A stretch of 64,000 nt of DNA from Qipengyuania gaetbuli (lineage in GTDB: Bacteria > Pseudomonadota > Alphaproteobacteria > Sphingomonadales > Sphingomonadaceae). Made by a program: the position numbers and the translations under genes. Shown here in pieces: positions 8,446 through 34,071 of the stretch; position 1 is the stretch's first letter; the number at the start of each line of letters is the position of its first letter. The notes under the pieces were generated by a model. The model was not told the origin of the DNA, made no database searches, and saw nothing but the letters and a program-made list of their open reading frames with translations. The DNA is taken from assembly GCF_020524765.1 (NCBI RefSeq), contig NZ_JAIVLR010000002.1, positions 212,501 to 276,500 on the forward strand. The letters run 5' to 3'.

Positions 8446-11400
8446 ATGCTCAAGACCAAATCGGGTTACGCATTCGCGAGCCGTTCCATCCTTTGCGCAG
8501 GGGCGGGCCTTGCCGCCATCGCACTTTCCACCAGCGCCGCGGCGCAGGACACCCAGCAGGAAGAGCCTGTAACCGTCGACACCGCGGAAGAAGAACTTCC
8601 GCCGGCAATCGTCGTGACCGGTTCGCGCATCGGCTCGGTCAACCAGTTCAACAGCCCGGACCCGATTGCGATCGTCGACCCGGGGATCGCCCGCCAGGAA
8701 GGCAAGCTCAGCCTTGCCGAAGCCCTGCAGAGCTCGCCGATCGCTGCCGGTTCGACCCAGATCACCTCGGCCCTGTCGTCGAACTTCGTGACCAACGGCG
8801 GTCCCGGCGCACAGACCATCAACCTGCGCGGCCTCGGTGCGAACCGCACGCTGGTCCTGCTGAACGGCCGCCGTGCCGGCCCGGCCGGTACGCGTGGCGG
8901 TGTGTCGTCCTTCGACCTCAACGTCCTGCCCCTGTCGATCATCAACGACATCCAGATCCTGAAGACCGGCGCTTCGTCGGTCTATGGTTCGGACGCGGTC
9001 GCCGGCGTGGTCAACATCTTCACCGGCAAGCGTGAAGACGGCCTGACCGTCGACTTCAACGTTTCGGTGCCCTTCGATGGCGGCGGCGAGGAATATCGCG
9101 GCAGCATCGCCTACACGAAGAACTTCAGCCGCGGTCACATCACCATCGCCGGCGACTATTCGCGCACCAACGAGCTTGCTCGCGGCGATCGCGACTATCT
9201 CGCCTGCCCGGAAGCCTACACTTTCCGCGAAGACGGTTCGCGCGCCGACCTTATCGATCCGCGTACCGGCCAGCCGCACTGTGAAGACCTGCGCTGGGGC
9301 CACATCTGGACCTACAACCTGATCGACAACATGCGTCTCGACGGTCCCGGCGGACCCGACACGGGCATCAACACCTCGATCGGCGGCCGTTCGGTCCTGC
9401 TGCAGTACCAGTATCCGGACAGCTTCCCCTATTTCGGCGGTGCGCTGAACATCCCGGCCTATGGCGCTCCGGCCTATGTCGGCGACTTCTCGGCTCCTGC
9501 CGGCTTCTTCCCGACTGGATATGACGCAGCATCGCTTGCGGTGCAGAACGCCTATCACCCGTTCGTCGAAGAACAGACGATCATTCCCGAAACCGACCTC
9601 TACACGGCATACGGCGAAGCTTCGTTCGAACTGTCCGACGCGGTCGAGCTGTTCGGCGAATTCCTGTTCAACCGCCGCGAGACCTACCAGAACGGCTGGC
9701 GCCAGTTCTGGAACTTCGGCTGGACCGGCGACATCTATTCGACCGGTGCGGGCAACTACTGGAACTACTGGGCCGACGGCTTCCAGGGCATCAACTTCCT
9801 GAGCCCGACGCCGATCACCAACCAGGCCGACAACAGCCAGCGCGTGGATTACTACCGCGGCGTGGGCGGCGTGCGCGGCAACATTTCCGATGCCGGCAAC
9901 TGGAAGTATGAAATCTACGCCCAGTACAGCCGCAGCGACGGTCGCTACCGCGCGCAGCAGATCCTGCAGGATGCGTACGACAGCGGTTACTTCCAGTACT
10001 CGTCCTGCGTCGGCACGACCCTGCCGGTCTCCGGCAAGCAGTGCATCGACATTCCGTGGGCCGATCCGCGCTTCCTGCGCGGCGACCTGACCGCGGAAGA
10101 AATCGACTTCCTGTTCGACTGGGAAGAAGGCCGCACGGTCTACACCCAGCTGACCGGTGAAGCAGTGATTTCGGGCGAGCCGATCCAGCTTCCCGCCGGC
10201 CCGCTCGGTATCGCTGTCGGTGTGACCGCACGCCGCGACCGCATCAACGACACGCCGGGTGACATCACCCTGGCCGGTAACGCCTGGGGCGCTGCCCTGT
10301 CCGGCATCACCGCCGGCAAGAGCGTCACGACCGAAGCGTTCGGCGAAATCAACATCCCGATCCTAGCGGACAAGCCCTTCTTCGAAGAGCTGACCTTCAA
10401 CGGTGCCGCGCGCGTCACCAATGTGAAGGCTACCCGCGCATCGGATGGTTTCACCGACGAAGACAACGGCAACTTCACCTACAAGCTGGGTGCAAACTGG
10501 GCGATGACCGACTGGCTCCGCCTGCGCGGCAGCTACGGCACGTCCTATCGTGCTCCGGCGCTGTTCGAGCAGTTCCTGGCCGATGAAACGGGCTTCGTGT
10601 CGCAGCGCTTCGACATCTGCGGCGGCTATGCCGGCGCATTTGCCGCAGGCGACATCTCGCAGCGCATCTACGACAACTGCCTCGCCGACGGCATCCCGCT
10701 GGACTACCAGGCCGGCGCGATCACCTTCGGTTCGCTATCGTCGGGCGGTATCGGCTTCCTCGAAGCGGAAACCTCCGAAGCTGCGGTCGTCGGTGTCATC
10801 CTGACGCCCGACCTATTCGCCGACACGCGTCTCAGCCTTGCGGTCGATTACTTCAAGATCAAGGTGAAGGACGAAATCGACCAGCTCGGTGCAGGCACGA
10901 TCATCTTCGGCTGCTACGATTCGGAAGATTTCGCCAACGAGCCGCTGTGCGACCTCATCACGCGTAACCGTGATCCGAACTCGACCACTGCGTTCGAAAT
11001 CCAGACCGTGCAGGATCCCTACATCAACATCTCGCAGCAGGAAAACGAGGGCATCGACCTCGCGCTGCGTGTCGAGCAGGGCCTTGGTTCGTGGGGCGAC
11101 CTCAGCTTCACCGCCGACATGACCTGGCAGCTGAAGGACGACACGCGTCTGCTCCCGACCTCGCCGGTGGAAAGCGACAACGGAGAAGCCGGTTCGCCCA
11201 AGTGGGTCGGCGACTTCCGCGCCAACTGGCGTCTGCCGTCCGACCTGACGCTGTTCTACGGCATCAACGTCATCGGCGGTACGTCGAACCGCGCCGAACT
11301 CGAAGCGGCCTTCGACGGTCCCTGCATCGACTCGATCAACCCGAACGACGGCAACCCGGTCCCGATCCGCGGCACCTACTGCCCGGTCGTGGAAACCGAC

Positions 11401-11613
11401 GCGGTGTTCTACCACAACTTCTCGCTGACGAAGGAAATCGCGGACGGCCGCGCTACCTTCACCGCGGGTCTCAGCAACATCTTCGACACGCGCCCGCCGC
11501 GCGTCTCGGTGCTGAACGGTGGCCAGATCTCGATGCTCGGCCCGGTGGTTGCTGCCTCGCAGTATCCGTTCGTCGGACGCCGCGCATTCATCAACGTGTC
11601 GATGAACTTCTGA
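8446..11613 (+). CDS. TonB-dependent receptor
   Basis: 1055-aa outer-membrane receptor. It begins LKTKSGYAFASRS with a Sec signal ending near AAA-QDT, then an acidic linker and a TonB box (AIVVTGSRIGSVNQF). The plug motifs INLRGLGANRTLVLLNGRRAG and SSVYGSDAVAGVVNIFTGK are followed by a long barrel ending in a terminal Phe (VSMNF). The barrel contains several Cys residues spaced like extracellular-loop disulfides (for example CGGY and NCLADG). It differs from the 4020-7064 receptor and has its own 175-nt upstream region, so it is probably a separate transcription unit. A hairpin terminator follows it and sulfotransferase genes lie just downstream. The ligand is unknown. Confidence 0.93.
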   Translation: MLKTKSGYAFASRSILCAGAGLAAIALSTSAAAQDTQQEEPVTVDTAEEELPPAIVVTGSRIGSVNQFNSPDPIAIVDPGIARQEGKLSLAEALQSSPIAAGSTQITSALSSNFVTNGGPGAQTINLRGLGANRTLVLLNGRRAGPAGTRGGVSSFDLNVLPLSIINDIQILKTGASSVYGSDAVAGVVNIFTGKREDGLTVDFNVSVPFDGGGEEYRGSIAYTKNFSRGHITIAGDYSRTNELARGDRDYLACPEAYTFREDGSRADLIDPRTGQPHCEDLRWGHIWTYNLIDNMRLDGPGGPDTGINTSIGGRSVLLQYQYPDSFPYFGGALNIPAYGAPAYVGDFSAPAGFFPTGYDAASLAVQNAYHPFVEEQTIIPETDLYTAYGEASFELSDAVELFGEFLFNRRETYQNGWRQFWNFGWTGDIYSTGAGNYWNYWADGFQGINFLSPTPITNQADNSQRVDYYRGVGGVRGNISDAGNWKYEIYAQYSRSDGRYRAQQILQDAYDSGYFQYSSCVGTTLPVSGKQCIDIPWADPRFLRGDLTAEEIDFLFDWEEGRTVYTQLTGEAVISGEPIQLPAGPLGIAVGVTARRDRINDTPGDITLAGNAWGAALSGITAGKSVTTEAFGEINIPILADKPFFEELTFNGAARVTNVKATRASDGFTDEDNGNFTYKLGANWAMTDWLRLRGSYGTSYRAPALFEQFLADETGFVSQRFDICGGYAGAFAAGDISQRIYDNCLADGIPLDYQAGAITFGSLSSGGIGFLEAETSEAAVVGVILTPDLFADTRLSLAVDYFKIKVKDEIDQLGAGTIIFGCYDSEDFANEPLCDLITRNRDPNSTTAFEIQTVQDPYINISQQENEGIDLALRVEQGLGSWGDLSFTADMTWQLKDDTRLLPTSPVESDNGEAGSPKWVGDFRANWRLPSDLTLFYGINVIGGTSNRAELEAAFDGPCIDSINPNDGNPVPIRGTYCPVVETDAVFYHNFSLTKEIADGRATFTAGLSNIFDTRPPRVSVLNGGQISMLGPVVAASQYPFVGRRAFINVSMNF

Positions 11614-17898: not shown

Positions 17899-19326
17899 TC
17901 AGGCGACGGCAGGCCGCCGCGCGTAGATACCAAAGGCGGCGATAATGCCGTAGCAGATCACCGGGATCACCATGGCGAGTGCGAGGTTGCCGCCGGTGGC
18001 ATCCGCCACCACGCCGTAGAGCAGGGGGACCACCGCGCCGCCGAAGATGGCGACGTTGATGATACCCGAACCGTCTGCCGCACGCGGGCCCAGCTTCTCA
18101 CAGGCGAGCGAGAAGATCGTCGGGAACATGATGGAGTTCATCAGGCCCACGGCCAGCAGCGAATAGGCAGCCACCTGGCCTGCGGTATTGGCCGAGATGA
18201 CGATCAGCAGGATCGCGCCGATGGCGTTGAAGGCCAGGATCTTGCCCGGGCTGAAGACGCGCAGCAGGCCCGAACCGATGAAGCGGCCGATCATGGCACC
18301 GCCCCAGTAGAGGCCGATCATCCAGCCGATCACGCTTTCCGGCTCGCCCAGCACGCGCTCGGTCGAGAGGTAGTTGATGATGATCGAACCGATGGCGACT
18401 TCCGCGCCGACGTATAGGAAGATGCACAGCGCGCCGAAGCTGAAGCGGGTGCGCCGCAGCAGGGCGTTGTCGTACAGCCAGACCACCGGTGCGGCGAGGA
18501 TGAAGAGCACGCCGAGCCAGCCGCTCACGTTGAGAGCGAGGAATGCGCCTGCTGCCGCCAGCGCCAGGCCGACGAGATAGCGGCCGTTCGACACCAGTTC
18601 GCCGTCGCCCATGATCTTCTCGTCATGTGGGAGGCGGTTGCGGAACATCCAGACGGCTGCGGCAACAAGCGCGATCAGCGCGGCAACGCCGAGGTAGCCC
18701 TGCCAGATCGCTTCGCTCTCCGCGGCGCGATAGGCTTGCAGCTCGGCGCCCGACAGCTGGTCTGCCGACATGTTTGCAAGGCTGCCGAGGATCACGGCCG
18801 CCCCGACAATCGGGAAGACCGTGGTGCCCAGCGAATTGAACGCCTGTGCAAAGGTCAGGCGGCTGTGGGTGGTGGACGGCGGCCCGAGCAGGCTGATGAG
18901 CGGGTTGGCCACCACCTGGACGATCACCACGCCGCTGGCGAGGATGAACAAGGCGCCGAGGAAAATAGCATAGGTTGCCGTCTGGCTCGCCGGGATGAAC
19001 AGCAGGCAGCCCAGGATCATTGTGGCAAGGCCTGCCACCGCGCCGCGCATGTAGCCGATTTTCTTGACTAGCTTCGCCCCGGGAATTCCGATCACGAGGT
19101 AGGCGGCGAAGAAGCAGAACTGCACCAGCATCGCTTCGGTGTAGCTGAGCGTGAACAACTCTTTCAGCTTGGGAATGATCACATCGTTCAGCGAGGTGAT
19201 CCCGCCGAAGATGAAGAACAGGCCCATTACGAAATACTGCAGGCCCGGTGCATTTACCGGCGGCGTGTCGTCGTCGACGACCGGTGCCGGATCGGTGCTC
19301 GACGCAACGTCAGGTGCCAATGCCAT
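17899..19326 (-). CDS. gluP: Sugar MFS permease of the FucP/GluP family
   Basis: 475-aa inner-membrane major facilitator with about 12 helices. It resembles glucose/galactose and L-fucose proton symporters: the first helix FVMGLFFIFGGITSLNDVIIPKLKELF, FFAAYLVIGIPGAKLVKKIGY and the central VVQVVANPLISLLGP segment are characteristic. It is the last gene of a minus-strand carbohydrate cluster, 105 nt behind the GH3 beta-glucosidase, so it probably imports the glucose released by that enzyme. The symbol is a family-level assignment and the precise sugar is not proven. An acidic N-terminal tail of about 25 residues precedes the first helix. Confidence 0.87.
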   Translation of the reverse strand: MALAPDVASSTDPAPVVDDDTPPVNAPGLQYFVMGLFFIFGGITSLNDVIIPKLKELFTLSYTEAMLVQFCFFAAYLVIGIPGAKLVKKIGYMRGAVAGLATMILGCLLFIPASQTATYAIFLGALFILASGVVIVQVVANPLISLLGPPSTTHSRLTFAQAFNSLGTTVFPIVGAAVILGSLANMSADQLSGAELQAYRAAESEAIWQGYLGVAALIALVAAAVWMFRNRLPHDEKIMGDGELVSNGRYLVGLALAAAGAFLALNVSGWLGVLFILAAPVVWLYDNALLRRTRFSFGALCIFLYVGAEVAIGSIIINYLSTERVLGEPESVIGWMIGLYWGGAMIGRFIGSGLLRVFSPGKILAFNAIGAILLIVISANTAGQVAAYSLLAVGLMNSIMFPTIFSLACEKLGPRAADGSGIINVAIFGGAVVPLLYGVVADATGGNLALAMVIPVICYGIIAAFGIYARRPAVA

Positions 19327-21949: not shown

Positions 21950-23155
21950 TCAGATTTTGCGGGTCAGGGTTATCAGCAGGAGCATGGCCAGGGCTGCAAG
22001 TGCGGCCAGGACGAGGAACAGCGCATCGAAGCCGAACACCGGTACGAGCGCCAGCGTCAGCCAGGGCATGATGAGGCTCGGAACGGTGTTGGTGAGGTTG
22101 AACAGGCCGAGATCGCGTCCGCGCGTGGCGGGCCTGGGCAGGAAACGCAGTGTCTGGCTGGTGTGCAATGCCAGGAACACGCTGGTGGCGAGGCCGAAAA
22201 CGACATAGCCCGCGATGGCCGGCACAAGTCCGTCGGCAAGACCCATGATCACGAGGCCCGCCGCTCCGACACCTGCTCCCCATGCAAGCGGGACGATCGG
22301 GCGGTCTGTCCGGTCCGACCATTTGCCTGCCAGCATGGCAGCGGGAATGGACAGGGCCAGCACGACTGTAAAAACGGTCGCCGTCTGGTTGTCGCCGAAC
22401 GTGGGATCGATCGTCGCGAACCAGACGAGAAGATAAGCGAAGAGCGCGGCTTCGGCGATCTGGACCAGCAGCCGCGCGAACCACATCCGGGCCACCGTGC
22501 GGTCGATCCGGGGCAGGACCGACGCTCTCAGCGGCGTTTGGATTTCCGGCGCTTCCATGAGGTGCGGCATCGGGCGCGGTCGGCCGAACAGGAGGACGGG
22601 CGCAACCATCAGCGCCACGATGACCGCGACGATCAACAGGCGCGCATCGGGTTCCGCGACGCCGGGCAGGGTGATCACTGCACCGGAGAGCGCACCCAGG
22701 GCCGGGGCGCAGGCCAGAAGTCCTCCCAGTCGCCCCTTTTGGCCATCGGGTACGCAATCTCCGGCCCAGGCGGCCAGCGGGGCCAGCATCATGTTGAGTG
22801 CGATTTGCCAGACTACGATGAGGGCAAGCAGTTCTGTCGGATTGCTGGTGCGGCTGACCGACACCAACAACAGGCACGACAATCCGAGGCCGGCTGCGAT
22901 CCAGATGCGGCGATTGTTCGTGCGGTCGCTCGCCCAGCCGAAGAAGATATTGGCAAGGCTCGCGGAAATCGCGCCGGCAAAGGCGATATATGCGAGCACG
23001 CCGACCGTGTCCGAGCCTTCCATCGCGGTAACGCGAAGGGGAAGGAGCAATGTCAGGAACGGGACGTAGGCGACCGCGCCGCCGGCGGCCGCCAGTGCGT
23101 AAAGATACAGGAACCGGCGCGATTGCTCCGCCTGCGATCCGGCCTCAGGCGGCAT
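21950..23155 (-). CDS. MFS transporter in the beta-glucoside cluster
   Basis: 401-aa inner-membrane transporter with about 12 predicted helices and MFS loop motifs (GWASDRTNNRR after helix 2, GKWSDRTDRP after helix 8). It starts inside the end of the LacI gene with an 11-nt overlap, so the two are co-translated. Position between regulator and beta-glucosidase suggests uptake of the oligosaccharide or disaccharide that GH3 or a cytoplasmic enzyme cleaves. It is distinct from the FucP/GluP-type permease at 17899-19326; having two transporters fits separate uptake of oligomer and monomer. Substrate assignment is inference. Confidence 0.8.
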   Translation of the reverse strand: MPPEAGSQAEQSRRFLYLYALAAAGGAVAYVPFLTLLLPLRVTAMEGSDTVGVLAYIAFAGAISASLANIFFGWASDRTNNRRIWIAAGLGLSCLLLVSVSRTSNPTELLALIVVWQIALNMMLAPLAAWAGDCVPDGQKGRLGGLLACAPALGALSGAVITLPGVAEPDARLLIVAVIVALMVAPVLLFGRPRPMPHLMEAPEIQTPLRASVLPRIDRTVARMWFARLLVQIAEAALFAYLLVWFATIDPTFGDNQTATVFTVVLALSIPAAMLAGKWSDRTDRPIVPLAWGAGVGAAGLVIMGLADGLVPAIAGYVVFGLATSVFLALHTSQTLRFLPRPATRGRDLGLFNLTNTVPSLIMPWLTLALVPVFGFDALFLVLAALAALAMLLLITLTRKI

Positions 23156-24292: not shown

Positions 24293-25795
24293 TCAGGCCG
24301 CTTCGGCCTGGTTGGCCCCGCAATACCGTGCCACATAGGCATGATGTTCGGGTAATCCTGCAACCGTTCGCGCCACGTTTTCCCTGATCGTGGCAAGGAA
24401 GCGGGTCAGTTCCTCTTCGCTCATCTTGGTCGCCACAGGGTGATAGGTCTTGGGCATGATGCCTTGGCCCATCATGACCTGAACCCAGCTGTTCTCGGCG
24501 AAAAGTTCCTCGTCGCGGCGGAAAACGCGCCCGGTTTCGCGGAAAAGCTCGATCTTGTGCGCCAGGCTTTCGGGAATCTCCATGTCCGCACACTGGCGCC
24601 AGAAGGGCGAGTCCCGCCGCTCGGTCGCCTTGTAGTGGAGGATAAGGAAATCGCGGATCTGGACCATGTCGGTCAACTGCTGGTCATTGAACTCGTCGAT
24701 ATCGGCCTGGGCGATCTCTCCGAACGGTATCATGCGGATAATCCGCAGTACCGCGCGCTGGATGAGGTGGATCGAGGTCGATTCCAGCGGCTCCATGAAT
24801 CCGCTCGAAAGACCGACCGCGACACAATTGCGGTGCCACTGCTTGCGGCGCGCGCCGGTGACGAAGCGGATGCGGTTGGGCTTGCTGCAGGTCTCGCCTT
24901 CGACCGACGAAAGCAGGCGAGCCTCGGCCTCGTCGTCGGAGAGATAGCGGCTGCAGTAAACTATGCCGTTGCCCTGGCGGTGCTGGAGCGGGATGCGCCA
25001 CTGCCAGCCTGAATCATGTGCGATGGCACGCGTATAGGGGATCGGCGGACGAACGCTCTCGGTCTGGACCGCGATGGCGCGGTCGCAGGGCAACTGGTGG
25101 CTCCAATCGTCGAAGCCGACGTGCAGCGCGCCTTCGATCAGCAGGGCTCGGAAGCCGGTGCAGTCGACGAACAGGTCGCCTTCTATGCGCGAACCGTCTT
25201 CGAGGTGCAGGGCAGCGATATTGCCGTTTTCCCCATCAAGCTCGACGCGCGCGATCTTGCCTTCCTTGCGCATGGCGCCATGCGCCTCGGCTTCACGCCG
25301 CAGGTAGGCGGCATAGCGGGTGGCATCGAGCTGGTAGGCGTAGTTGATCCGGTTTTCCGGCAGGTGGGCGAACTTGCCGGCATAGGCTGCCTTGAGTTCG
25401 AGGCAGTAGTCGTCGAAGCTTTCGGTGTGACCCTTGGTCAGGCCGTGGAGCCAGAAATGCTGGAAGCCTGCCGACCAGTGGTCGCGGCCGGTTGCGCCGA
25501 AGGAGTGGAAGTACTTTTCGCCATCGACCTTCCAGTTCTCGAACTCGATGCCGAGTTTGAAGGTCGCCTGCGTCTCGCGCATGAAGGTGTTTTCGTCGAT
25601 GCCGATCAGCTGATTGTATTTCACCAGCGGCGGGATCGTGCTCTCGCCCACGCCGACCGTACCGATCGCGTCGCTTTCCACCAGCGTCAGTTCGATCGTC
25701 TTGCCCATCGTGCGGGCGAGCGCACACGCCGCCATCCATCCGGCAGTGCCGCCCCCGGCAATGACGATGCGGCGAGGAGTGTAATCGGTCTTCAT
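24293..25795 (-). CDS. Tryptophan-halogenase family flavoprotein (canonical motifs)
   Basis: 500-aa member of the flavin-dependent halogenase family. The FAD-binding GGGTAGWMAA motif is near residue 13. ATFKLGIEF carries the Lys that in characterised enzymes forms the chlorinating intermediate. WQWRIP matches the WxWxIP motif that separates halogenases from monooxygenases. VGLSSGFMEPLEST holds the active-site Glu-Ser region. It overlaps the cupin gene by 4 nt (ATGA) and is the last gene of the TBDR-associated minus-strand run. In TBDR loci of Sphingomonadales, Caulobacter and Xanthomonas, these proteins recur next to carbohydrate genes and their substrates are unknown. There is no natural-product assembly line here, so free tryptophan is not an obvious substrate. 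Confidence 0.88.
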   Translation of the reverse strand: MKTDYTPRRIVIAGGGTAGWMAACALARTMGKTIELTLVESDAIGTVGVGESTIPPLVKYNQLIGIDENTFMRETQATFKLGIEFENWKVDGEKYFHSFGATGRDHWSAGFQHFWLHGLTKGHTESFDDYCLELKAAYAGKFAHLPENRINYAYQLDATRYAAYLRREAEAHGAMRKEGKIARVELDGENGNIAALHLEDGSRIEGDLFVDCTGFRALLIEGALHVGFDDWSHQLPCDRAIAVQTESVRPPIPYTRAIAHDSGWQWRIPLQHRQGNGIVYCSRYLSDDEAEARLLSSVEGETCSKPNRIRFVTGARRKQWHRNCVAVGLSSGFMEPLESTSIHLIQRAVLRIIRMIPFGEIAQADIDEFNDQQLTDMVQIRDFLILHYKATERRDSPFWRQCADMEIPESLAHKIELFRETGRVFRRDEELFAENSWVQVMMGQGIMPKTYHPVATKMSEEELTRFLATIRENVARTVAGLPEHHAYVARYCGANQAEAA

Positions 25796-26823
25796 GAGTT
25801 CAGCATCCTGAGGAGAAATGAGCGCAGGCGCGAGGCGGCAGGTGCATCGAGCGGGTCGAGGACACCCCTTTTCCCGGCGGGAATGTGCGCATGGTTCGCA
25901 GGTTCATGGGAAAACACATAGTGGTCGAACAGGTCGCGCCAGATCTCGCGGTCGGCCTGCGGAAGGTCACGCAATGCAAGTATCGCGTGGTTCAGCGCCA
26001 CCTGCGGATCGCCGCCCCAGGCTGCGCCATCGCGCCACCAGTAATTCACGAGGACGTTGAAGTCCGAAAGCCCTTCGACATGGTGCCACCACATGGAAGG
26101 AACGAACAGCGCGTCCCCCGGCTCCATGTTCGCCACCTGCGCATGGCCCAGAGCCTCGGCGAAGCGCGGGAAACGATCGAGGTCCGGGGCATGGAAATCG
26201 ACCATGCTGATGGGCCTGCCCGCAGGAGTGTTGTCCAGCGGCCCCAGGTAGAGGTTGCGGAACTGGTCGGGCGGAAACAGCGTGAACCGCCGCTTTCCGA
26301 CAGCGCAACAGGCCAGGTTGTCGGGAAAGTCGCTATGGGCAGCGACCCTGGTCGCATTGCCTATCCAGATACTGTGTCGCGGGTTGCGTTCGCCCAGCGG
26401 AGGCGGATTTTCCTCCGCCACGCCATCGAAATGGCTCTTGATGTCGATGGAGCCAAGATAGGCTGTCGGTGCATCGGGCTGGCCTTCGTGCTTTTCGAAG
26501 CCGGCGAATATCTCCGCCAGCTTTCCTTTGCCCATGCGGAAATTCATCGACATGTCGTCGTCGTAGAACATGCGACCGCCCTGGGCTGGCGGACCCAACG
26601 AGATCGCGAATTGTACCGGGCGCGCCCGCTCCACGAGATAGGCACGGGCTGCATTGTTCGATTCCAGCCCGGCCTGGACCAGCGGCCAATCCTTCACCAG
26701 TCCGCGCACGAGAAACGGTTCGCGCGCGTCCTTCAGCAGCGCATCCAGCGCCGCTTCATCCCGAACTTCGCGTTCGGGTACCGCCTTCATGGCGGCGAAG
26801 ATGGAAGGGTCGGCTTCAGCCAT
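25792..26823 (-). CDS. Cupin_8/JmjC-like Fe(II)/2-oxoglutarate-dependent oxygenase
   Basis: 343-aa cytoplasmic protein of the cupin_8 (FIH-like) group, which includes peptide and protein hydroxylases. The facial triad is visible: HSD (HxD) in VAAHSDFPDNLAC, and the distal His in VPSMWWHHVEGL. The FTLFPPDQFRNLYLGPL segment is typical of the family. I chose ATG at 26823, which overlaps the SapC stop by 8 nt; an ATG at 26838 would add five residues. It sits between SapC and the canonical halogenase in overlapping genes, so the products probably act in one pathway, possibly oxidative modification of a surface peptide, protein or glycan. That role is inference. Confidence 0.83.
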   Translation of the reverse strand: MAEADPSIFAAMKAVPEREVRDEAALDALLKDAREPFLVRGLVKDWPLVQAGLESNNAARAYLVERARPVQFAISLGPPAQGGRMFYDDDMSMNFRMGKGKLAEIFAGFEKHEGQPDAPTAYLGSIDIKSHFDGVAEENPPPLGERNPRHSIWIGNATRVAAHSDFPDNLACCAVGKRRFTLFPPDQFRNLYLGPLDNTPAGRPISMVDFHAPDLDRFPRFAEALGHAQVANMEPGDALFVPSMWWHHVEGLSDFNVLVNYWWRDGAAWGGDPQVALNHAILALRDLPQADREIWRDLFDHYVFSHEPANHAHIPAGKRGVLDPLDAPAASRLRSFLLRMLNS

Positions 26824-27535
26824 TCCGGACCTTGGCATCCTTGCGTTCGACGAGATCGGAGAAATGCGACAGCGAGGCCAGCGCCATGAATACGGGCATC
26901 AGGTGGCCGCTTCCATGCAAGTCGGCGAGGGCATCGCCATCGAGGCTCTGGAGCTTGCTTTCATTGACGATGTGAAAGCCGACGAGCGAATGCTTCGAGC
27001 CGTCCGACAAGGGCACTTCCAGCGTGAACGGCTCGAGCAGATCGTGCCGCTTCAGGGCGTCGAAGAAGCCGGCGCTGTCGCGGTGGCCCTGGTCGAGTTC
27101 GCCCAGCATGCCTGCAATATCCTCGAGGAACGGCGTGGTCCCTCCATCCTCGTCGAAAACGCGGGTGCCTTCGCCGTTTTTCGAGACGCGCGGATGGTCC
27201 ATGTCGATGTGCACCTGGCCCACACCTTCGCCGTTCTGCGTCCGCCCGATGAGGAACGGCTGGATGGCAAGGCTGAGCGGGCGGTAACGCGCGTCCCAGT
27301 TTCCGTCCTTCAGGAACAGGTTCTCGCCGTTCTCGAACCCGAACAGGGCAAGCGCGGTGAAGCTGTCATCTTCCTGGTTCTTGCGGAACACGATCGGATA
27401 TTCCGCCTGCACGCGCCGGAATTCGATCGGCGTGACCAGCGTGCCCATGACGGCGTCGCCGCGCTCCGCACTAGGCTCGAGCAGGACCCGCAGATCGCGG
27501 TGATCGGCATTGTTCAGGACTTGGTGGTTGCTCAT
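26816..27535 (-). CDS. sapC: SapC family protein
   Basis: 239-aa protein of the SapC family, named from a gene linked to surface-layer protein transport in Campylobacter; its biochemical role is unresolved. Family features seen are LVTPIEFRRVQAEYPIVFRK, the hydrophobic ALALFGFENGENLFL stretch, and the C-terminal LPVF-like segment GHLMPVFMALASLSH. No signal peptide or membrane helix is evident. The ATG at 27535 begins one base after the upstream stop, with GGGAGAA about ten bases earlier. In sphingomonads, SapC genes recur inside TBDR-halogenase-cupin clusters, so it is likely functionally tied to them. Confidence 0.85.
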   Translation of the reverse strand: MSNHQVLNNADHRDLRVLLEPSAERGDAVMGTLVTPIEFRRVQAEYPIVFRKNQEDDSFTALALFGFENGENLFLKDGNWDARYRPLSLAIQPFLIGRTQNGEGVGQVHIDMDHPRVSKNGEGTRVFDEDGGTTPFLEDIAGMLGELDQGHRDSAGFFDALKRHDLLEPFTLEVPLSDGSKHSLVGFHIVNESKLQSLDGDALADLHGSGHLMPVFMALASLSHFSDLVERKDAKVRNG

Positions 27536-27536
27536 T

Positions 27537-29084
27537 TCAGGCAATTTCTCCCTCGCGCGCATCCGGCGCAGCGGTTGTGTTCACAGCGTCGAGATAGACG
27601 CGATTTGTCGGTAATGCAGCAGCCAAGCCGCGCGCACGTTCGCGCACTTCGGCAAGGCGGCGCTGCGCAAGTTCGAGATCCGCGCCCGGCGCAGTTTCGG
27701 GCGCCGGGAAGCCCATGCCGTAAAGCACGTAGTGCTGGCTGTAGGCGGAGAATATCTCGTCGATCTGCGGAAAGTCCCATTGCGAGGGCGGCTGGTCACG
27801 CCACAGCACCAGCTGTTCGCCCAGCGAGGCGGGGACAGTTTCGGGGGCGCGCTGGGCTCGCCAGTAGGGTTCTGTTCTTTCGCTCAGCACGTAGTGGAGC
27901 TTGAGAAAGTCCACGATCCGGTTCCAGCGGTAGCGGAACAGCGTGTTGAACCGCGCCGCGTGGGCGGGCAGCGCCGCCCGGCTCGCGGGGAAGTTTTCCG
28001 CCAGTGCCTTCAGCGACAGTTCGATCAGCACGATGGCAGAAGCTTCGAGCGGCTCGATGAACCCTGCCGAAAGACCGACGGCAAGGCAATTGCCCTGCCA
28101 GAACCGTTCGCGGTGCCCGGTCCTGAAGGACAGCTTGCGCGGGGCGAGGCTGTCGAGGTCGGCTCCGGCGACATTGGCAGCGATGTACGTGCGCAAGGTA
28201 GCCTCCGCCTGTGCATCGTCGCAGAAGCGGGAGGAATAGACGCAGCCGATCCCGCGGCGGGTCGGTAGTGCAATGTCCCACAGCCAGCCCGCTTCGTGCG
28301 CGGTGCCGATGGTCTGCGAGGCGATCGGCGCGTCGGGGAGGGTGGGGACCTGTACGGCGAGCGCGCGGTCGTTGAACGACACGTCGGACCGGTCGACCCA
28401 TCCCCCTTCGAGGTGTCCATCCGCAAGCACCGCGGCCATGCCGGTGCAGTCGAGGAAGAAATCGCCTTCCAGCCTGCCGTTTTCGCGCAAGACCAGCGCA
28501 TCCACCAGCCCGTCTGCACCGACTTCGACACCGGAAATATGATCGGCAAGATGAGTAACGCCGAGCCGCGCGGTCGCGTGGCGTTCGAGCAGGCGTGCGA
28601 ATTTGCCCGCGTCGAGGTGATAGCCGTAATTCAGCGCGCCCGCGTAATCCGGCATGGAACGCTGTCGCGGGGCAAGGTTGCGAACGCAGGCATCGGCCTG
28701 CGGCGTCACTGCGGAGGCGAAGGCAACGCCCGGCGCATGCTGCTGCCATGCCGACAGGAGTGCCCGCATATCGCCGGGAGCGGGGGCCGTGAACGGGTGG
28801 AGATAGCTGTCGCCGGCCTTTCCGGTGCGCCAGCCGTCGAAACGCGAGCCCTGTTTGAAGCTGGCATCGCATTCGCGCAGGAATTCCGCTTCGGGGATGC
28901 CGATGGTGCGCAGCGTGTCGCGCATGGTCGGCCAGGTGCCCTCTCCCACACCGATGGTCGGGATGTCCGGTGCCTCGACCAGGGTAATCGACAGGTCGGG
29001 ACGACGTGCGGCGAGATAGGCGGCGGAAAGCCACCCCGCGGTGCCTCCACCGGCAATCACCACATTTTGCATCTGTCGCGCCAT
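27537..29084 (-). CDS. Tryptophan-halogenase family flavoprotein (divergent motif)
   Basis: 515-aa second halogenase-family flavoprotein. It keeps the FAD motif [10 protein letters not shown] and the Lys in ASFKQGSRF, but the WxWxIP signature reads WLWDIA (Pro replaced by Ala), and the active-site EPLES region reads EPLEAS, with Ala where the other paralogue has Ser. It may have lost halogenation or changed to another flavin chemistry. It is the first gene after the large TBDR and its terminator-like hairpin, and is followed by sapC one base later. The start was placed at ATG 29084 (MARQMQNVV), with GGGGCAGAG upstream; ATG at 29117 is the long alternative. Identity with the 24293-25795 protein appears low outside motifs. 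Confidence 0.85.
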
Positions 29085-29210: not shown

Positions 29211-32200
29211 TTAGAAGCTGAAGCGAACACCCGCCGCGTAGCGCGGTGCACCACGATAGGCGAAGAAGGTGTTGTTCTCGCTGCGGCGGTAACCCTTCAG
29301 GTTCTCGCCGGTCAGGTTGATCGCTTCCGCGAACACCGTCAGCCCGTTGTCGAACTCGTACGAGGCGCTGGCGTCGATCTGCCAGTACTCGTCACGATAG
29401 AACGGGTTGGTCGGGTTCTGGCTGTAACCGGCCAGGAAGTCGTCACGCCAGTTCCACGCCGCACGAGCCTGGAACGGACCCTTGTCGTAGAACAGGACGG
29501 CGTTGGCGCTATCCGAAAGACCGACCAGCGCGAACTGCGGGATTCGGTAGGGCTGGGTGTTGTCGAACTCGGCATCGCCGTTGACGATGGTGTAGTTCAG
29601 GATGACACCGAAGCCGGTTTCCCAGAAGTTGTGCTGGAGCGCGAATTCCCAACCGTCGATCGTTGCCTTCTGGTCCGAGTTGATCGGAACGGAGATGTTG
29701 AACTCGAGCAGCGGATCGCCCGGAACGCCGAGGATGGCGGTCTGGCCGGTGACCGGGTTGAACGAGGTCGTCTCGGGGTAGTTGGCAATGATGTAGGCGC
29801 GGATGTCGTCGTTCGAGATGGCACCGCCGCCAAGGGCTGCACGCGCTTCTGCAGCACGCGGACCATTGTAGGGCTGGTAGACACCTTCGAAGAACTGCTG
29901 GATCCCGCCGACCGTGATGTAGTTCTCCACGTTCTTGCGGAAGTAGCCGACCGACATGTAGCTGGCGTTGCCGTAGTACCATTCGACCGAAGCGTCGAAG
30001 TTCTCCGACTTGAACGGCAGCAGGTTCGGGTTGCCCTGGTTACCGTCGCCACCGTCCACGCGGAACAGCGGGTTCAGGCTCAGGCCACCCTGCAGGTTGT
30101 CGTAGGTCGGGCGGGTGATCGTGTGGCTGTAGGAAGCACGGAAGATCACATCCTGGATCGGCTCGATGTCGAAGTCGATGTTCGGCAGCCAGAAGTCGTA
30201 GCTACCCTTGGCACGGGTGAAGTCACGAGCATCTGCGTAGCTGAGGTTGAACTCGTTCGCCGCAACCCAGGCCGAACCGTCGGGGATCAGCGAAAGAGCC
30301 CGCGAATCGACATCGGTCACTTCGTAACGAAGGCCCGTGATGAGGTGTGCCTCACCAGCGCCGACGTCGAACGAGAATGCCGCCTCGGCGTAAGGAGCCA
30401 GGGTCTTTTCCGTGATGCGACGGTCGATGTCCTGGACAGCAAGGCAGGTGCCGGGCTGTGCAGCGCCGGTTGCCGGGCTCGAGCAGATGCCGAACTGGCT
30501 TTCCAGCAGGTCGACCATGCGTTCCACGTCGAAGCCGTAGAAGCTCTGGATGATGTTCGGGTTATCGACACCTTCAAGGCCGCGGAACGCATCGGTCACG
30601 CTGATCGGGAAGAAGATGTCGTCCGGAATATCAGCCGGAGTGCCGAGGCCGCCCCAGGTATCGTTCTGGATGAAGCCGTAGGCCGACTGGACGCGGTTGT
30701 TGGTGTAGGTCACGCCGAAGTCGAGCGACTGCAGGAAGGAATCTGCTTCCGGCGTGTAGTTGCCGCTCAGCTGGACCTGATCGATCTCGTCCTTGAAGTA
30801 GGCATTGCGGAACGCGTTACCCGTGGCAAAGCGCTGCGCCACGTCGTTGCCGTCCGTACCGGTCGCATTCGTGTAGGAAATGACCGGCAGGTAGGACGTG
30901 TAGTCGATGGTCTGCGTCTGCACGTTGAACACGGCGGTGCCGACCGACAGGTTCGAACCGTACGGCAGCGTCGGCTTCGATTCTGCGCTCGAGCTGTGCG
31001 CGTCGAGCGTGAAGGTAAAGCCGTTGGGCGCTTCCCATTCGATGTTGCCACCCAGCGAGTGGTTGATCGAGCGGTTGGCCGTGAGCGAGCCGCTGTAGGA
31101 AAGGTCGGACGGTGCGCCGCCGAAGTTTTCCGAGTAGAACAGGATGTCCGCAACCGGGCCGTCACCCCACGCACTCGAAGTCGTGACGTGGTTGAACCAG
31201 ATGCCGACCGAGCTCTGCGCGGCTTCGACAGTGTTCTGCGAGAAGGTGTAGTCGAGCGTCGCGGTGACGTTGTCGCCCAGCTTCGCCTGCAGCACGGCCT
31301 GGCCGTTGATGCGCTCGCGGTCGATGTTGGTGACGTTGTACGAACCGTTCTGCGGAACCGCGTAGACGGTGTTGGCGTCGGGGCGGTTTTCCTGGAGGTT
31401 GTAGTTACCACGCCAGTCGTTGCCCGGATCGCAGGGGATAGCGCCCCACTCGTTTTCGTAGCCGCTGCCGCAACCAAGGTAACCGTCGCGGAATTCGCTG
31501 AAGAACTGGTTGAAGCCCGATTTGCGCTTCTGGTAGCTGCCGGTGACAGCGATACCGATGCGGTCTTCGGCGAAGGTCTTGCTGATGACGCCCGAAACTT
31601 CCGGCGTGATGCTCACATCGTCGTTTTCGGATTCGTCATAGACGCCCTTGACGGCAAAGCTGCCGCTGAAGCCCGGATTGTTGAGCGGGCGCGGGGTGCG
31701 GATGTTGATCGACGAACCGATACCGCCCGAAGGAACGGTCGCGCGGCCGGTCTTGTAGACCTCGACGGCGACGACTGCTTCGGAAGCGAGGTTGCCGAAG
31801 TCGAACGAACGCGACGAAGGCGCGCTGGCGCCGTCACCGAGAGTCGAAGTCGGCATCTGGCGGCCGTTGAGCGTGACGAGGTTGTATTCCGGACCGAAGC
31901 CGCGAACCGTGACGCGGGCGCCTTCGCCGTTTTCACGGTCGATCGACACGCCGGTGATACGCTGCAGCGATTCGGCCAGGTTGGTATCGGGGAATTTGCC
32001 GATATCTTCTGCCGAAATCGCATCGACGACACCCTGCGCGTTGCGCTTGATGTTCATGGCATCGCGCAGCGAAGCGCGAATACCGGTGACGACGATAACG
32101 TCGTCTTCTGCGACGACTTCTTCAGCCGCCTCCTCGCCGGCAGTGGCGTCTTGCGCCATTGCCTGGGTGGCGCTGAGTCCCATTGCCACCACCGATGCCC

Positions 32201-32243
32201 CCGCCATGAATTTGGCAAAAGAGGGCTTACGTCCAAAAGCCAT
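29211..32243 (-). CDS. TonB-dependent receptor, Xanthomonas-Caulobacter type (carbohydrate locus)
   Basis: 1010-aa receptor of the class found in carbohydrate-utilisation loci of Xanthomonas, Caulobacter and sphingomonads. The signal peptide ends near AMA-QDA. The TonB box VIVVTGIRASL is followed by the diagnostic plug string DAISAEDIGKFPDTNLAE and by GARVTVRGFGPEYNLVTLNG. The barrel ends with Phe (YAAGVRFSF). The start at ATG 32243 (MAFGRKPSF) has a strong GGGAGGAGA ribosome site; an upstream in-frame start would add 14 residues with no signal. Two LacI-type operators are 51-80 bp upstream. The likely role is uptake of a glucoside oligomer cleaved by the GH3 enzyme of the same regulon. Confidence 0.94.
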   Translation of the reverse strand: MAFGRKPSFAKFMAGASVVAMGLSATQAMAQDATAGEEAAEEVVAEDDVIVVTGIRASLRDAMNIKRNAQGVVDAISAEDIGKFPDTNLAESLQRITGVSIDRENGEGARVTVRGFGPEYNLVTLNGRQMPTSTLGDGASAPSSRSFDFGNLASEAVVAVEVYKTGRATVPSGGIGSSINIRTPRPLNNPGFSGSFAVKGVYDESENDDVSITPEVSGVISKTFAEDRIGIAVTGSYQKRKSGFNQFFSEFRDGYLGCGSGYENEWGAIPCDPGNDWRGNYNLQENRPDANTVYAVPQNGSYNVTNIDRERINGQAVLQAKLGDNVTATLDYTFSQNTVEAAQSSVGIWFNHVTTSSAWGDGPVADILFYSENFGGAPSDLSYSGSLTANRSINHSLGGNIEWEAPNGFTFTLDAHSSSAESKPTLPYGSNLSVGTAVFNVQTQTIDYTSYLPVISYTNATGTDGNDVAQRFATGNAFRNAYFKDEIDQVQLSGNYTPEADSFLQSLDFGVTYTNNRVQSAYGFIQNDTWGGLGTPADIPDDIFFPISVTDAFRGLEGVDNPNIIQSFYGFDVERMVDLLESQFGICSSPATGAAQPGTCLAVQDIDRRITEKTLAPYAEAAFSFDVGAGEAHLITGLRYEVTDVDSRALSLIPDGSAWVAANEFNLSYADARDFTRAKGSYDFWLPNIDFDIEPIQDVIFRASYSHTITRPTYDNLQGGLSLNPLFRVDGGDGNQGNPNLLPFKSENFDASVEWYYGNASYMSVGYFRKNVENYITVGGIQQFFEGVYQPYNGPRAAEARAALGGGAISNDDIRAYIIANYPETTSFNPVTGQTAILGVPGDPLLEFNISVPINSDQKATIDGWEFALQHNFWETGFGVILNYTIVNGDAEFDNTQPYRIPQFALVGLSDSANAVLFYDKGPFQARAAWNWRDDFLAGYSQNPTNPFYRDEYWQIDASASYEFDNGLTVFAEAINLTGENLKGYRRSENNTFFAYRGAPRYAAGVRFSF

Positions 32244-32293
32244 CTGTGATTCTCCTCCCAAGACATGCGCTTGGCGCGCACGCAAAGCTAAAT

Positions 32294-32305
32294 GTGAACG
32301 TTCAC
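32294..32305. promoter_or_regulatory. LacI-family operator 1 upstream of the TBDR
   Basis: Perfect 12-bp palindrome GTGAACGTTCAC, about 51 bp upstream of the receptor start. It shares the AACGTT core with the site before the GH3 gene. It probably overlaps the promoter and mediates repression. Confidence 0.75.
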
Positions 32306-32311
32306 CTATTT

Positions 32312-32323: not shown

Positions 32324-32444
32324 TCGGTCAATTCCAGTGGATTCGTTTGCACAGAAATTGCGCGAAGTGTGACATTCCTGTTTCAGCTATTGCGCGCAAC
32401 GCCCCCATTGCTCTCTTCGGCGCGTGGCGTTAGCGCCGCTGGCG

Positions 32445-33035
32445 ATGTTCGACCCGCAGGCCTTCCGCAGCGCACTTGGCTCATTCGTGACCGGCGTCAC
32501 CATCGTGACGACGCGCGATGCCGACGGGCGTCCGGTGGGCCTGACTGCCAACAGCTTCAATTCGGTGAGCCTCGACCCGCCGATGGTGCTGTGGAGCCTC
32601 TCGCTCCATTCGGGCAGCCTGCCGGTCTTTCGCGAGGCGCAGAGCTGGGCGGTCCACGTGCTGGCCGCAGACCAGCAGGCCATGTCCGACCGCTTTGCGC
32701 AGCCGGGCAACGACAAGTTTGCCGGGCTCGACGTGGTCGACGGGCCGGAAGGCGCGCCGCTGCTGGCAGGATACGCTGCGCGGTTCGGTTGCCGCGCCCG
32801 CTTCGAATACGAAGGCGGCGACCATGCGATCTTCCTCGGCGAAGTGGTCGAATTCGAGCGCCGCGATGCCGAACCGCTGATCTATCATTCCGGCCGGTAC
32901 GGGCGTCTGATGCGCGCGCCGACCGGCGAGGATCTGGAGCACGAGGGCCTCGCGGAGAAATCGGGCGAGGGACTTGCCCTTACGGAACGCGGCCTTGAAC
33001 TGCTGCGGGCGCTAGAAGGCATCGCGAAGCGCTAG
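32445..33035 (+). CDS. Flavin reductase-like protein (FMN-binding split barrel)
   Basis: 196-aa NAD(P)H:flavin oxidoreductase-like protein. It shows the family start FRSALGSFVTGVTIVTTRD, the substrate loop GLTANSFNSVSLDPPMV and the late EYEGGDHAIFLGEVVEF segment. Such enzymes supply reduced flavin to two-component monooxygenases and halogenases. The ATG at 32445 fits the normal family start; a GTG at 32424 is possible. It is transcribed divergently from the TBDR-halogenase locus and leads the plus-strand catabolic genes, so its partner could be a halogenase or a monooxygenase of the catabolic operon. No strong SD is visible. The C-terminal 35 residues form an extra helix-rich tail. Confidence 0.83.
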   Translation: MFDPQAFRSALGSFVTGVTIVTTRDADGRPVGLTANSFNSVSLDPPMVLWSLSLHSGSLPVFREAQSWAVHVLAADQQAMSDRFAQPGNDKFAGLDVVDGPEGAPLLAGYAARFGCRARFEYEGGDHAIFLGEVVEFERRDAEPLIYHSGRYGRLMRAPTGEDLEHEGLAEKSGEGLALTERGLELLRALEGIAKR

Positions 33036-33039
33036 ACTC

Positions 33040-33087
33040 TCTCCTGCCCGCCCGATACCGGTTGCGAAAAGCAACCAGCAGGAGAGG
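33040..33087 (+). promoter_or_regulatory. Nested hairpin covering the ribosome binding site of the next gene
   Basis: Outer 9-bp stem (CTCTCCTGC at 33040-33048 with GCAGGAGAG at 33079-33087) encloses an inner 6-bp hairpin (GGTTGC-GAAAA-GCAACC, 33061-33077). The Shine-Dalgarno AGGAG (33081-33085) of the gene starting at 33094 lies inside the outer stem. There is no T-run, so a translational control element is more likely than a terminator. Pairing was checked by eye only. Confidence 0.5.
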
Positions 33088-33093
33088 CAGGCC

Positions 33094-34071
33094 ATGAAGA
33101 CTCGCATCACCGAAATGTTCGGCATCGAGCATCCGATCATCCAGGGCGGCATGCATTATGTCGGTTTCGCCGAAATGGCGGCAGCCGTGTCCAATGCCGG
33201 CGGTCTCGGCATCATCACCGGCCTGACGCAGGGCACGCCCGAAAAGCTCGCCAACGAGATCGCGCGCTGCAAGGACATGACCGACAAGCCCTTCGGCGTG
33301 AACCTGACCTTCCTGCCCACCGTCAACGCGCCCGATTATCCGGGGCTGGTGCGCGTGATCATCGAAGGCGGGGTGAAGATCGTGGAGACGGCGGGCAACA
33401 ATCCCGCACAGGTCCTGCCCTATTTCAAGGATGCGGGCGTCAAGGTCATCCACAAGTGCACCAGCGTGCGCCACAGCCTCAAGGCCCAGTCGATCGGCTG
33501 CGACGCGGTTTCGGTCGACGGCTTCGAATGCGGCGGGCACCCGGGCGAGGACGACATCCCCAACATGATCCTGCTGCCCCGCGCGGCGGACGAGCTGGAA
33601 ATCCCCTTCGTCGCCAGCGGCGGCATGGCCGATGGCCGCAGCCTCGTCGCCAGCCTCGCGATGGGCGCGGACGGCATCAACATGGGCACGCGCTTCATCG
33701 CCACCAAGGAAGCGCCGGTGCACGAGAACGTGAAGAAGGCGATCGTCGCGGCTTCCGAACTCGACACGCGCCTCGTCATGCGCCCGCTGCGAAACACCGA
33801 GCGCGTGATGACCAATGACGCAGTGGAGGAACTGCTCCGCATCGAGAAGGAAAAGGGCTCGGACCTCAAGTTCGAGGATATCATCGAACAGGTCGCCGGC
33901 GTTTATCCGCGCATCATGACCGAAGGCGACATGGATGCAGGCGCATGGTCCTGCGGCATGGTTGCAGGCCTCATCCACGACATCCCGACCTGCAAGGAGC
34001 TGATCGACGGCATCATGGCTCAGGCCGAGGAGATCATCACCAAGCGGCTTGCAGGTTTCCAGAACGCATAA
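33094..34071 (+). CDS. Nitronate monooxygenase / 2-nitropropane dioxygenase family protein
   Basis: 325-aa FMN-dependent TIM-barrel protein. The opening HPIIQGGMHYVGFAEMAAAVSNAGGLGIITG, the QVLPYFKDAG stretch, the GFECGGHPGEDD loop and the phosphate-binding ASGGMADGRS motif define the family. Family members oxidise alkyl nitronates, but many act as enoyl reductase-like flavoproteins of unknown substrate. Its place before acyl-CoA dehydrogenase, SDR and aldo/keto reductase genes suggests a role in a catabolic pathway for an acyl-CoA or cyclic compound rather than nitroalkane detoxification. AGGAG is eight bases before the ATG, sequestered in a predicted hairpin. The acyl-CoA dehydrogenase gene begins 11 nt after the stop. 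Confidence 0.85.
   Translation: MKTRITEMFGIEHPIIQGGMHYVGFAEMAAAVSNAGGLGIITGLTQGTPEKLANEIARCKDMTDKPFGVNLTFLPTVNAPDYPGLVRVIIEGGVKIVETAGNNPAQVLPYFKDAGVKVIHKCTSVRHSLKAQSIGCDAVSVDGFECGGHPGEDDIPNMILLPRAADELEIPFVASGGMADGRSLVASLAMGADGINMGTRFIATKEAPVHENVKKAIVAASELDTRLVMRPLRNTERVMTNDAVEELLRIEKEKGSDLKFEDIIEQVAGVYPRIMTEGDMDAGAWSCGMVAGLIHDIPTCKELIDGIMAQAEEIITKRLAGFQNA

What the first reader, a model, noticed from the sequence alone, without database searches (positions are those of the whole stretch)
24293..29084. Two different halogenase-family enzymes in a SapC/cupin cassette
Four tightly packed genes encode a divergent halogenase-like enzyme, SapC, a cupin_8 oxygenase-like protein and a canonical halogenase-like enzyme. 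The gene at 24293 has WQWRIP and EPLEST. The one at 27537 has WLWDIA and EPLEAS, while both keep the Lys. One may halogenate and the other perform another flavin reaction. There is no biosynthetic gene cluster here, so the substrate may be a surface protein, peptide or the sugar-uptake machinery itself. This is the best candidate for an undescribed modification system in the window.
Basis: partly seen in the sequence, partly recalled or inferred. Interest (0 to 1): 0.72.

Follow-up and report, generated by a model that had tools for sequence, protein, structure and literature searches.

The report
Halogenase-family pair beside sugar receptor
A sugar-uptake gene cluster in a sphingomonad-like bacterium carries two different halogenase-family enzymes plus two further proteins, and the same set sits beside the same kind of outer-membrane receptor in many other bacteria, which suggests that these enzymes serve the receptor rather than antibiotic production.

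Summary
Observation confirmed. On the minus strand lie a TonB-dependent receptor (TBDR), halogenase-family enzyme FDH-B (WLWDIA, EPLEAS), SapC, a cupin_8/FIH-like oxygenase and FDH-A (WQWRIP, EPLEST), followed by LacI, MFS and GH3 sugar genes. The unit is conserved: of the 80 named FDH-B loci kept by one scan (Alpha-, Beta-, Gammaproteobacteria), 77 have a TBDR, 73 SapC, 67 cupin_8, 60 the whole set; FDH-B-type stands first in 65 of 65 and FDH-A-type last in 64 of 64 cassettes. Of 19 halogenase-family genes sampled in the order, 17 have a TBDR within about 8 kb. The genome's only PF01613 flavin reductase lies across the TBDR promoter; in 14 of 30 congener loci it directly follows an FDH gene. 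A LacI-type operator precedes the TBDR. FDH-A resembles Xcc4156/BrvH (indole brominases, native substrate unknown). FDH-B keeps Lys and Glu but loses the Pro of WxWxIP and two residues of Fx.Px.Sx.G. My reading: the cassette modifies a polypeptide of the uptake system, most likely the TBDR before export. No substrate is shown; residue tests were inconclusive. I found no description of the cassette in the open-access library searched.

The parts
29211..32285 (-). TonB-dependent receptor (TIGR01782), first gene of the predicted operon; signal-peptide-like N-terminus by eye
   Evidence: TIGR01782 584 bits, cut-off 310; one of 2 such receptors over the cut-off in this genome, both beside FDH genes
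27537..29084 (-). FDH-B: divergent flavin-dependent halogenase-family enzyme (WLWDIA, EPLEAS); the listed ORF extends to 29117
   Evidence: PF04820 396 bits; 9ltb 68% identical (also top); AlphaFold model pLDDT 88.7
26816..27535 (-). SapC (PF07277), start at Met10 of the listed ORF (27562); about 1 bp after the FDH-B stop
   Evidence: Pfam E 3.5e-67; alignment; model pLDDT 96 with no PDB fold match at E <= 0.001
25792..26838 (-). Cupin_8 / FIH-like protein with the HxD...H pattern of Fe(II)-2-oxoglutarate oxygenases (H168, D170, H252)
   Evidence: Pfam E 4.6e-68; nearest solved chains FIH, E 2e-20; the three residues at 100% in 100 aligned rows
24293..25795 (-). FDH-A: flavin-dependent halogenase of Xcc4156/BrvH type (WQWRIP, EPLEST); start overlaps the cupin stop by 4 bp
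   Evidence: PF04820 633 bits; 6y1w Xcc4156 644 bits, 6frl BrvH 454 bits
23145..24206 (-). LacI-family regulator
   Evidence: PF00356 + PF13377; a LacI gene within the fetched stretch of 47 of 80 named loci
21950..23155 (-). MFS transporter
   Evidence: PF07690
19432..21867 (-). GH3 glycosidase with Exop_C domain
   Evidence: PF00933, PF01915, PF18559; GH3 within 44 of 80 named loci
17899..19326 (-). GluP-type glucose/galactose MFS transporter
   Evidence: TIGR01272 261 bits, cut-off 203
32424..33035 (+). Flavin reductase (PF01613), divergent from the TBDR; probable supplier of reduced flavin (inferred)
   Evidence: PF01613 142 bits; only PF01613 match in the genome; in the 30 best congener loci an FDH lies directly upstream in 14 and a TBDR alongside in 9
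32292..32307 (.). LacI-type palindrome ATGTGAACGTTCACCT upstream of the TBDR, predicted operator
   Evidence: core upstream of the TBDR in 24 of 59 full cassettes, 0 of 59 control stretches

Best explanation
It is a sugar-controlled cassette that works for a TonB-dependent sugar receptor. Shown by sequence: the genes are packed like one operon with the TBDR first, the set is conserved in three proteobacterial classes, and a LacI-type palindrome precedes it in this and other loci. Inferred: the divergent flavin reductase supplies reduced flavin; FDH-A makes a hypohalous-type oxidant (bromide preferred, as in Xcc4156/BrvH) and halogenates an indole (Trp) in a polypeptide at an open active site; FDH-B, with an altered halide/flavin loop, performs a second flavin reaction (hydroxylation, or halogenation elsewhere); the FIH-like cupin_8 enzyme hydroxylates a further side chain; SapC is an adaptor that binds FDH-B and/or the substrate. 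By eye none of the four has a signal peptide, so the likeliest substrate is the unfolded precursor of the TBDR (or another polypeptide of the uptake system) in the cytoplasm before export.
For: Conservation and order: 80 named loci, TBDR 77, SapC 73, cupin_8 67, full set 60; positional classes 65 of 65 and 64 of 64. TBDR link: 17 of 19 sampled FDH genes; 26 of 37 sampled TIGR01782 receptors have an FDH within about 7 kb; 78 of 83 genomes with a strong FDH match have a TIGR01782 receptor versus 28 of 64 without. Sugar range: the locus here (GH3) and a GH13/GH97 locus elsewhere in the genome both have an FDH pair, so one aglycone is unlikely to be the common factor. Polypeptide substrate: the cupin_8 protein's nearest solved relatives are FIH, JMJD5 and JMJD7 (that these are protein hydroxylases is recalled); Xcc4156 and BrvH have open sites, act on indole but not free Trp, and a peptide substrate was proposed for them (PMC7336383, passages); the free-Trp motif Trp4 is in 0 of 239 FDHs. 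SapC tie: three natural FDH-B::SapC fusions. Flavin supply. Regulation.
Against: No substrate residue found: Trp363 of the TBDR is W in 98% of SapC-linked receptors but only 32% of those with FDH and no SapC gene, and 15% of unlinked ones; independent contrasts show no association. 11 of 37 sampled receptors of the family have no FDH near. 5 genomes have a strong FDH match but no TIGR01782 receptor, and 2 of 19 sampled FDH genes lack a TBDR nearby. SapC is missing near 28 FDH-linked receptors (some have a fused SapC or end at a contig edge). No activity data; FDH-B fails two motif tests.
Confidence: 0.42

Rival explanations
1. The enzymes act on a small aromatic molecule that enters with the sugar, for example the aglycone freed from aryl-beta-glucosides by the GH3 enzyme, halogenating or hydroxylating it for detoxification or catabolism.
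For: GH3 in 44 and LacI in 47 of 80 named loci; the related Xcc4156 and BrvH halogenate indole derivatives (PMC7336383, passages); a nitronate monooxygenase-like gene flanks the reductase.
Against: FDH genes also stand in a GH13/GH97 locus of the same genome; the commonest partner is the TBDR, not one hydrolase; the FIH-like enzyme points to proteins.
Confidence: 0.18
2. The product is a halogenated indole-type signal or toxin (or a hypohalous oxidant) made when sugar is plentiful, to defend the niche or the receptor against competitors and phages.
For: Free indole is a substrate of related enzymes in vitro (PMC7336383, passages).
Against: It would not explain SapC and the FIH-like enzyme; the cassette genes follow each other with gaps near zero, so no export or biosynthesis gene stands between them. 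Export and resistance genes elsewhere in the loci were not searched for.
Confidence: 0.12
3. SapC itself is the substrate: its Trp89 is modified by the FDHs and SapC then acts as a carrier or regulator.
For: Trp89 in 95% of 119 SapCs with FDH or cupin_8 nearby but in 8 of 30 lone SapCs.
Against: The three FDH::SapC fusions lack the segment that bears Trp89 (read by eye); 28 receptors have an FDH neighbour without a separate SapC gene; linked and lone SapCs may simply be two clades; lone was judged on about 1.5 kb flanks.
Confidence: 0.1

Closest known systems
Xcc4156 (6y1w) and BrvH (6frl), indole brominases of unknown native substrate
   Same: FDH-A: full-length match (644 and 454 bits), WxWxIP, catalytic Lys and Glu, Ser in place of the Gly of Fx.Px.Sx.G as in BrvH (Xcc4156 has Asn there; PMC7336383, passages), no Trp4 motif; BrvH also lies next to a second FDH gene (PMC5945002, passages)
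   Different: Activity of FDH-A untested; the passages seen give no TBDR, SapC or cupin context (term 'TonB' 0 times in both papers)
Altererythrobacter sp. S1-5 putative Trp halogenase 9ltb; Shewanella frigidimarina 2pyx; Pseudoalteromonas sp. L11-2 9lu2
   Same: FDH-B: 68%, 45% and 39% identity and the same fold
   Different: No activity of these three known to me; a search for the codes 9ltb, 9luq, 9lu2 found no paper
PrnA/RebH/Thal free-tryptophan halogenases
   Same: Fold (TM about 0.84-0.87 to the FDH-B model), GxGxxG, Lys, Glu
   Different: No Trp4 motif; sugar locus; FDH-B lacks the Pro of WxWxIP and two residues of Fx.Px.Sx.G
QhpG, LodB, GoxB flavoenzyme maturases (that they act on protein side chains is recalled)
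   Same: Weak sub-threshold profile hits: QhpG 37-38 bits for both FDHs; LodB and GoxB about 19 bits for FDH-A
   Different: Far below the curated cut-offs (240-400 bits)
FIH and other JmjC hydroxylases
   Same: Cupin_8 gene: HxD...H and core region, E 2e-20
   Different: Bacterial, TBDR-linked, substrate unknown
Proteobacterial TBDR carbohydrate-utilisation loci (Bgl loci of Shewanella, PMC2996990; BglR of Caulobacterales, PMC4052901; passages)
   Same: LacI regulator, beta-glucosidase and (Shewanella) TBDR and glucose permease
   Different: Neither text contains 'halogenase' or 'SapC'

Membership tests
Trp_halogenase (PF04820) | Profile score over the gathering cut-off | tested here: met
   633 (A) and 396 (B) bits, cut-off 21
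Flavin-dependent halogenase, functional | Catalytic Lys and Glu | tested here: met
   Both enzymes; K88 and E358 invariant in 16 FDH-B rows
Flavin-dependent halogenase, functional: FDH-A | WxWxIP | tested here: met
   WQWRIP
Flavin-dependent halogenase, functional: FDH-B | WxWxIP | tested here: not met
   WLWDIA; 115 of 239 distinct FDHs lack the Pro
Flavin-dependent halogenase, functional: FDH-A | Fx.Px.Sx.G | tested here: not met
   F, P, S kept, Gly is Ser, as in the active BrvH (sequence; motif and exceptions in PMC7336383)
Flavin-dependent halogenase, functional: FDH-B | Fx.Px.Sx.G | tested here: not met
   F, P kept; Ser and Gly are both Ala (sequence)
Free-tryptophan halogenase | Trp4 substrate motif (PMC8269204, passages) | tested here: not met
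   0 of 239 FDHs, strict and loose patterns
Xcc4156/BrvH indole brominases | Bromination of indole, not of Trp | not testable with these tools
   Only sequence similarity tested
Protein-Trp hydroxylase QhpG (NF049967) | Score over 240 bits | tested here: not met
   37 and 38 bits
Cupin_8 / FIH-like 2OG oxygenase | HxD...H iron triad | tested here: met
   H168, D170, H252 at 100% in 100 rows
SapC (PF07277) | Profile score over cut-off | tested here: met
   227 bits, cut-off 28.9
TonB-Xanth-Caul receptor (TIGR01782) | Score over 310 bits | tested here: met
   584 bits
Biosynthetic gene cluster | Secondary-metabolite synthesis genes nearby | not tested
   No cluster predictor run

The most novel reading that the evidence does not exclude
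A widespread, sugar-controlled post-translational modification system for outer-membrane transporters: two paralogous halogenase-family enzymes and an FIH-like hydroxylase, with SapC as adaptor, edit aromatic and other side chains of the TBDR precursor in the cytoplasm, which tunes glycan binding or shields the receptor from phages and toxins.
Probability: 0.3. Interest if true: 0.88.

Novelty: new variant of a known kind. Interest (0 to 1): 0.6.

Why it matters
The native substrates of BrvH and the Xanthomonas halogenases are recorded as unknown (PMC7336383, passage). This work ties that enzyme class, and a second class with solved structures but no activity known to me (2pyx, 9ltb, 9lu2), to TBDR sugar loci and to SapC, whose confident model has no PDB match at E <= 0.001. 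That narrows the search to a testable set: the receptor, its uptake partners and SapC in cells grown on the inducing sugar.

Tried and rejected
TBDR Trp columns as substrate marks: W544 and W363 looked striking by frequency, but independent contrasts were uninformative (W363: on average 1.1 pairs the same way and 1.2 the opposite way of 9; W544: 1.2 and 0.0; part of that output was cut), and the W544 alignment is ragged. Rejected as evidence.

SapC Trp89 as a universal substrate: rejected as universal because the fusions lack that segment and 28 FDH-linked receptors have no separate SapC gene nearby.

More FDH::SapC fusions: the fused domain matched 28 of 398 phylum genomes, none in an open frame longer than 406 aa. 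The fusions stay at three: two families of this order (L074, L076) and a Thalassotalea (L195). L195 shows no TBDR by the HMM used; four of its larger neighbours scanned with Pfam are a kinase, a YgjK-like glucosidase, a phosphoesterase and a subtilase.

SapC fold: no PDB or viral match at E <= 0.001; the second aligner was not available. Alignment A3 (fusions with separate FDH and SapC rows) was misaligned and not used.

Flavin reductase as a general cassette member: not supported outside the genus and its near kin (found by my HMM in 3 of 80 named loci), supported inside the genus.

Rows dropped before counts: FDHs outside 440-760 aa, with score 300 or less, or duplicates; TBDRs under 800 aa or under 350 bits, and 2 receptors with a distant FDH; SapC ORFs over 345 aa; one TIGR01782 sample row at a contig end. 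Papers: PMC5945002, PMC7336383, PMC8269204, PMC11337851, PMC4911050, PMC4052901, PMC2996990 and PMC5507952 were seen as found passages only; PMC1790865 was searched for five terms with no occurrence; all others only as search listings.
Full report
Check of the observation. The four genes are present at the stated places on the minus strand and belong to PF04820, Cupin_8, SapC and PF04820. The first gene of the predicted operon is a TIGR01782 TBDR at 29211-32285; a LacI regulator, an MFS transporter, a GH3 glycosidase with an Exop_C domain and a GluP-type glucose transporter follow. The spacing is operon-like: SapC's Met10 lies about 1 bp from the FDH-B stop and FDH-A overlaps the cupin stop by 4 bp; in 66 cassettes the median gaps after TBDR, FDH-B, SapC and cupin_8 are 104, -1, -8 and -4 bp (starts are mechanical, so single values are rough).

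The two enzymes. Both keep GGGTAGW, the Lys and the EPLE Glu. In cassettes of the order TBDR-FDH-SapC-cupin-FDH the first enzyme lacks the Pro of WxWxIP in 65 of 65 (mostly WIWDIG, EPLEAS) and the last has it in 64 of 64 (49 with EPLEST); among 239 distinct FDHs 124 have the Pro and 115 do not. FDH-A is nearest to Xcc4156 (644 bits) among solved structures. FDH-B is nearest to 9ltb of Altererythrobacter (68%), then 2pyx and 9lu2; its model has pLDDT 88.7. FDH-A and FDH-B are 36% identical. Of the motif Fx.Px.Sx.G, quoted in PMC7336383, FDH-A keeps all but Gly, which is Ser as in the active BrvH; FDH-B has Ala at both the Ser and the Gly. The tryptophan-binding motif Trp4 of PMC8269204 is in 0 of 239. 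So FDH-A is a probable indole-type halogenase and FDH-B is of uncertain chemistry.

Conservation and linkage. With HMMs built here, 77 of 80 hold a TBDR, 73 SapC, 67 cupin_8, 68 at least two FDHs, 60 the full set, 47 LacI, 44 GH3. Of the three loci without a TBDR, two are cut by a contig end close to the FDH (L192, L206) and one is a fusion locus (L195). To lessen the bias of starting from FDH-B, I took every 8th of the first 145 PF04820 rows, which is ordered by score and so favours FDH-A-type genes: 17 of 19 have a TBDR in the fetched stretch of at most about 8 kb each side. From the other side, every 4th of the first 149 TIGR01782 rows (37 of 38, one at a contig end left out): 26 of 37 have an FDH, 11 do not. 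Over 147 genomes of the order, 78 of 83 with an FDH match below about E 1e-50 have a TIGR01782 receptor at E <= 1e-60, 5 do not, 28 receptor genomes lack FDH and 36 have neither (odds ratio 20; species are not independent). This genome has two TIGR01782 receptors over the cut-off, each beside an FDH pair; the second pair brackets two GH13 genes and one GH97 gene.

Partners. The cupin_8 protein has H168, D170 and H252 at 100% in 100 aligned rows and is nearest to FIH, then JMJD5, C2orf60 and JMJD7 chains. SapC has no PDB sequence relative up to E 1; its model has pLDDT 96, and Foldseek finds no match at E <= 0.001 in PDB (best 0.29) or in the viral library (best 0.062). Three loci hold natural FDH-B::SapC fusions (L074, L076, L195), which suggests a physical link. 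SapC also occurs without these neighbours, including once in this genome (C3:136912, L087).

Flavin supply. The gene at 32424-33035 is the only PF01613 match in the genome. In the genus, 52 of 60 genomes have a relative at E <= 1e-40; of the 30 best loci, 30 have the same NMO-like neighbour, 14 have an FDH directly upstream on the same strand, 9 have a TBDR alongside and 7 show neither within about 1.5 kb. Two different FDH/TBDR arrangements therefore meet this reductase, which fits a two-component enzyme; other reductase families were not searched.

Regulation. ATGTGAACGTTCACCT at 32292-32307 is a LacI-type palindrome in the TBDR promoter. A loose match to the 16-base pattern in 64 kb is not rare by itself (38 of 100 shuffles had one). 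The stronger evidence is comparative: the core TGAACGTTCA with up to 1 mismatch lies upstream of the TBDR in 24 of 59 full cassettes and in 0 of 59 control stretches within the gene, and the 24 are all among the 44 loci with a LacI gene; in 45 other loci it is 4 against 1 control. In the genome two exact 12-base sites exist, this one and one in the second FDH locus (there near the start of a GH13 gene), and four with one mismatch; the control pattern gave one. PMC4052901 and PMC2996990 (passages) describe LacI-type BglR regulators for beta-glucosides, the latter with a TBDR, without 'halogenase' or 'SapC'.

Substrate tests. TBDR Trp columns: W363 in 98% of 100 SapC-linked, 32% of 28 FDH-only and 15% of 34 unlinked receptors; W544 in 79, 61 and 0% (20 stretches were fetched because they looked unlinked). 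On the tree neither is separable from descent. SapC Trp89: 95% of 119 linked and 8 of 30 lone, but missing in the fusions. The substrate remains open.

Judgement. The cassette as a functional, receptor-linked unit is well supported (my estimate 0.9). A polypeptide substrate is more likely than a small molecule (about 0.6), and the TBDR precursor is my first candidate. A biological role (tuning of glycan binding, or protection of a receptor that phages and toxins use) is inference only. No paper describing the cassette was found, whose library holds open-licence papers only.

Noticed in passing
L085:9413-17916 (G000:C2 about 397-406 kb): Second FDH pair of the genome brackets one GH97 and two GH13 genes next to a TIGR01782 TBDR: a starch/maltodextrin-type locus with the same enzyme family.
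   Followed up: partly
window 32424-34071: Flavin reductase plus NMO-like gene form a pair in 30 of the 30 best congener loci, beside which two different FDH/TBDR arrangements are found; a possible recurrent exchange site.
   Followed up: partly
L074:9254-11236, L076:9080-11080, L195:9998-11989: Natural fusions of FDH-B with a shortened SapC domain; L195 (Thalassotalea) has no TBDR found nearby but a YgjK-like glucosidase.
   Followed up: partly
L087:9793-10626 (G000:C3:136912): Lone SapC copy without FDH, cupin_8 or TBDR found nearby; similar lone copies occur in other genomes of the order; function unknown.
   Followed up: partly
window 7810-11613 (+): Another large TBDR ORF (1267 aa; plug and barrel by Pfam) in the window, treated as not FDH-linked in the receptor comparison.
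   Followed up: partly
window 26816-27535, SapC model mf9b67fd4987e: Confident predicted structure (pLDDT 96) with no PDB match at E <= 0.001: a candidate new fold; H21, E47, P56, G75, N81, D120 and S230 are among the residues invariant in 36 rows.
   Followed up: partly
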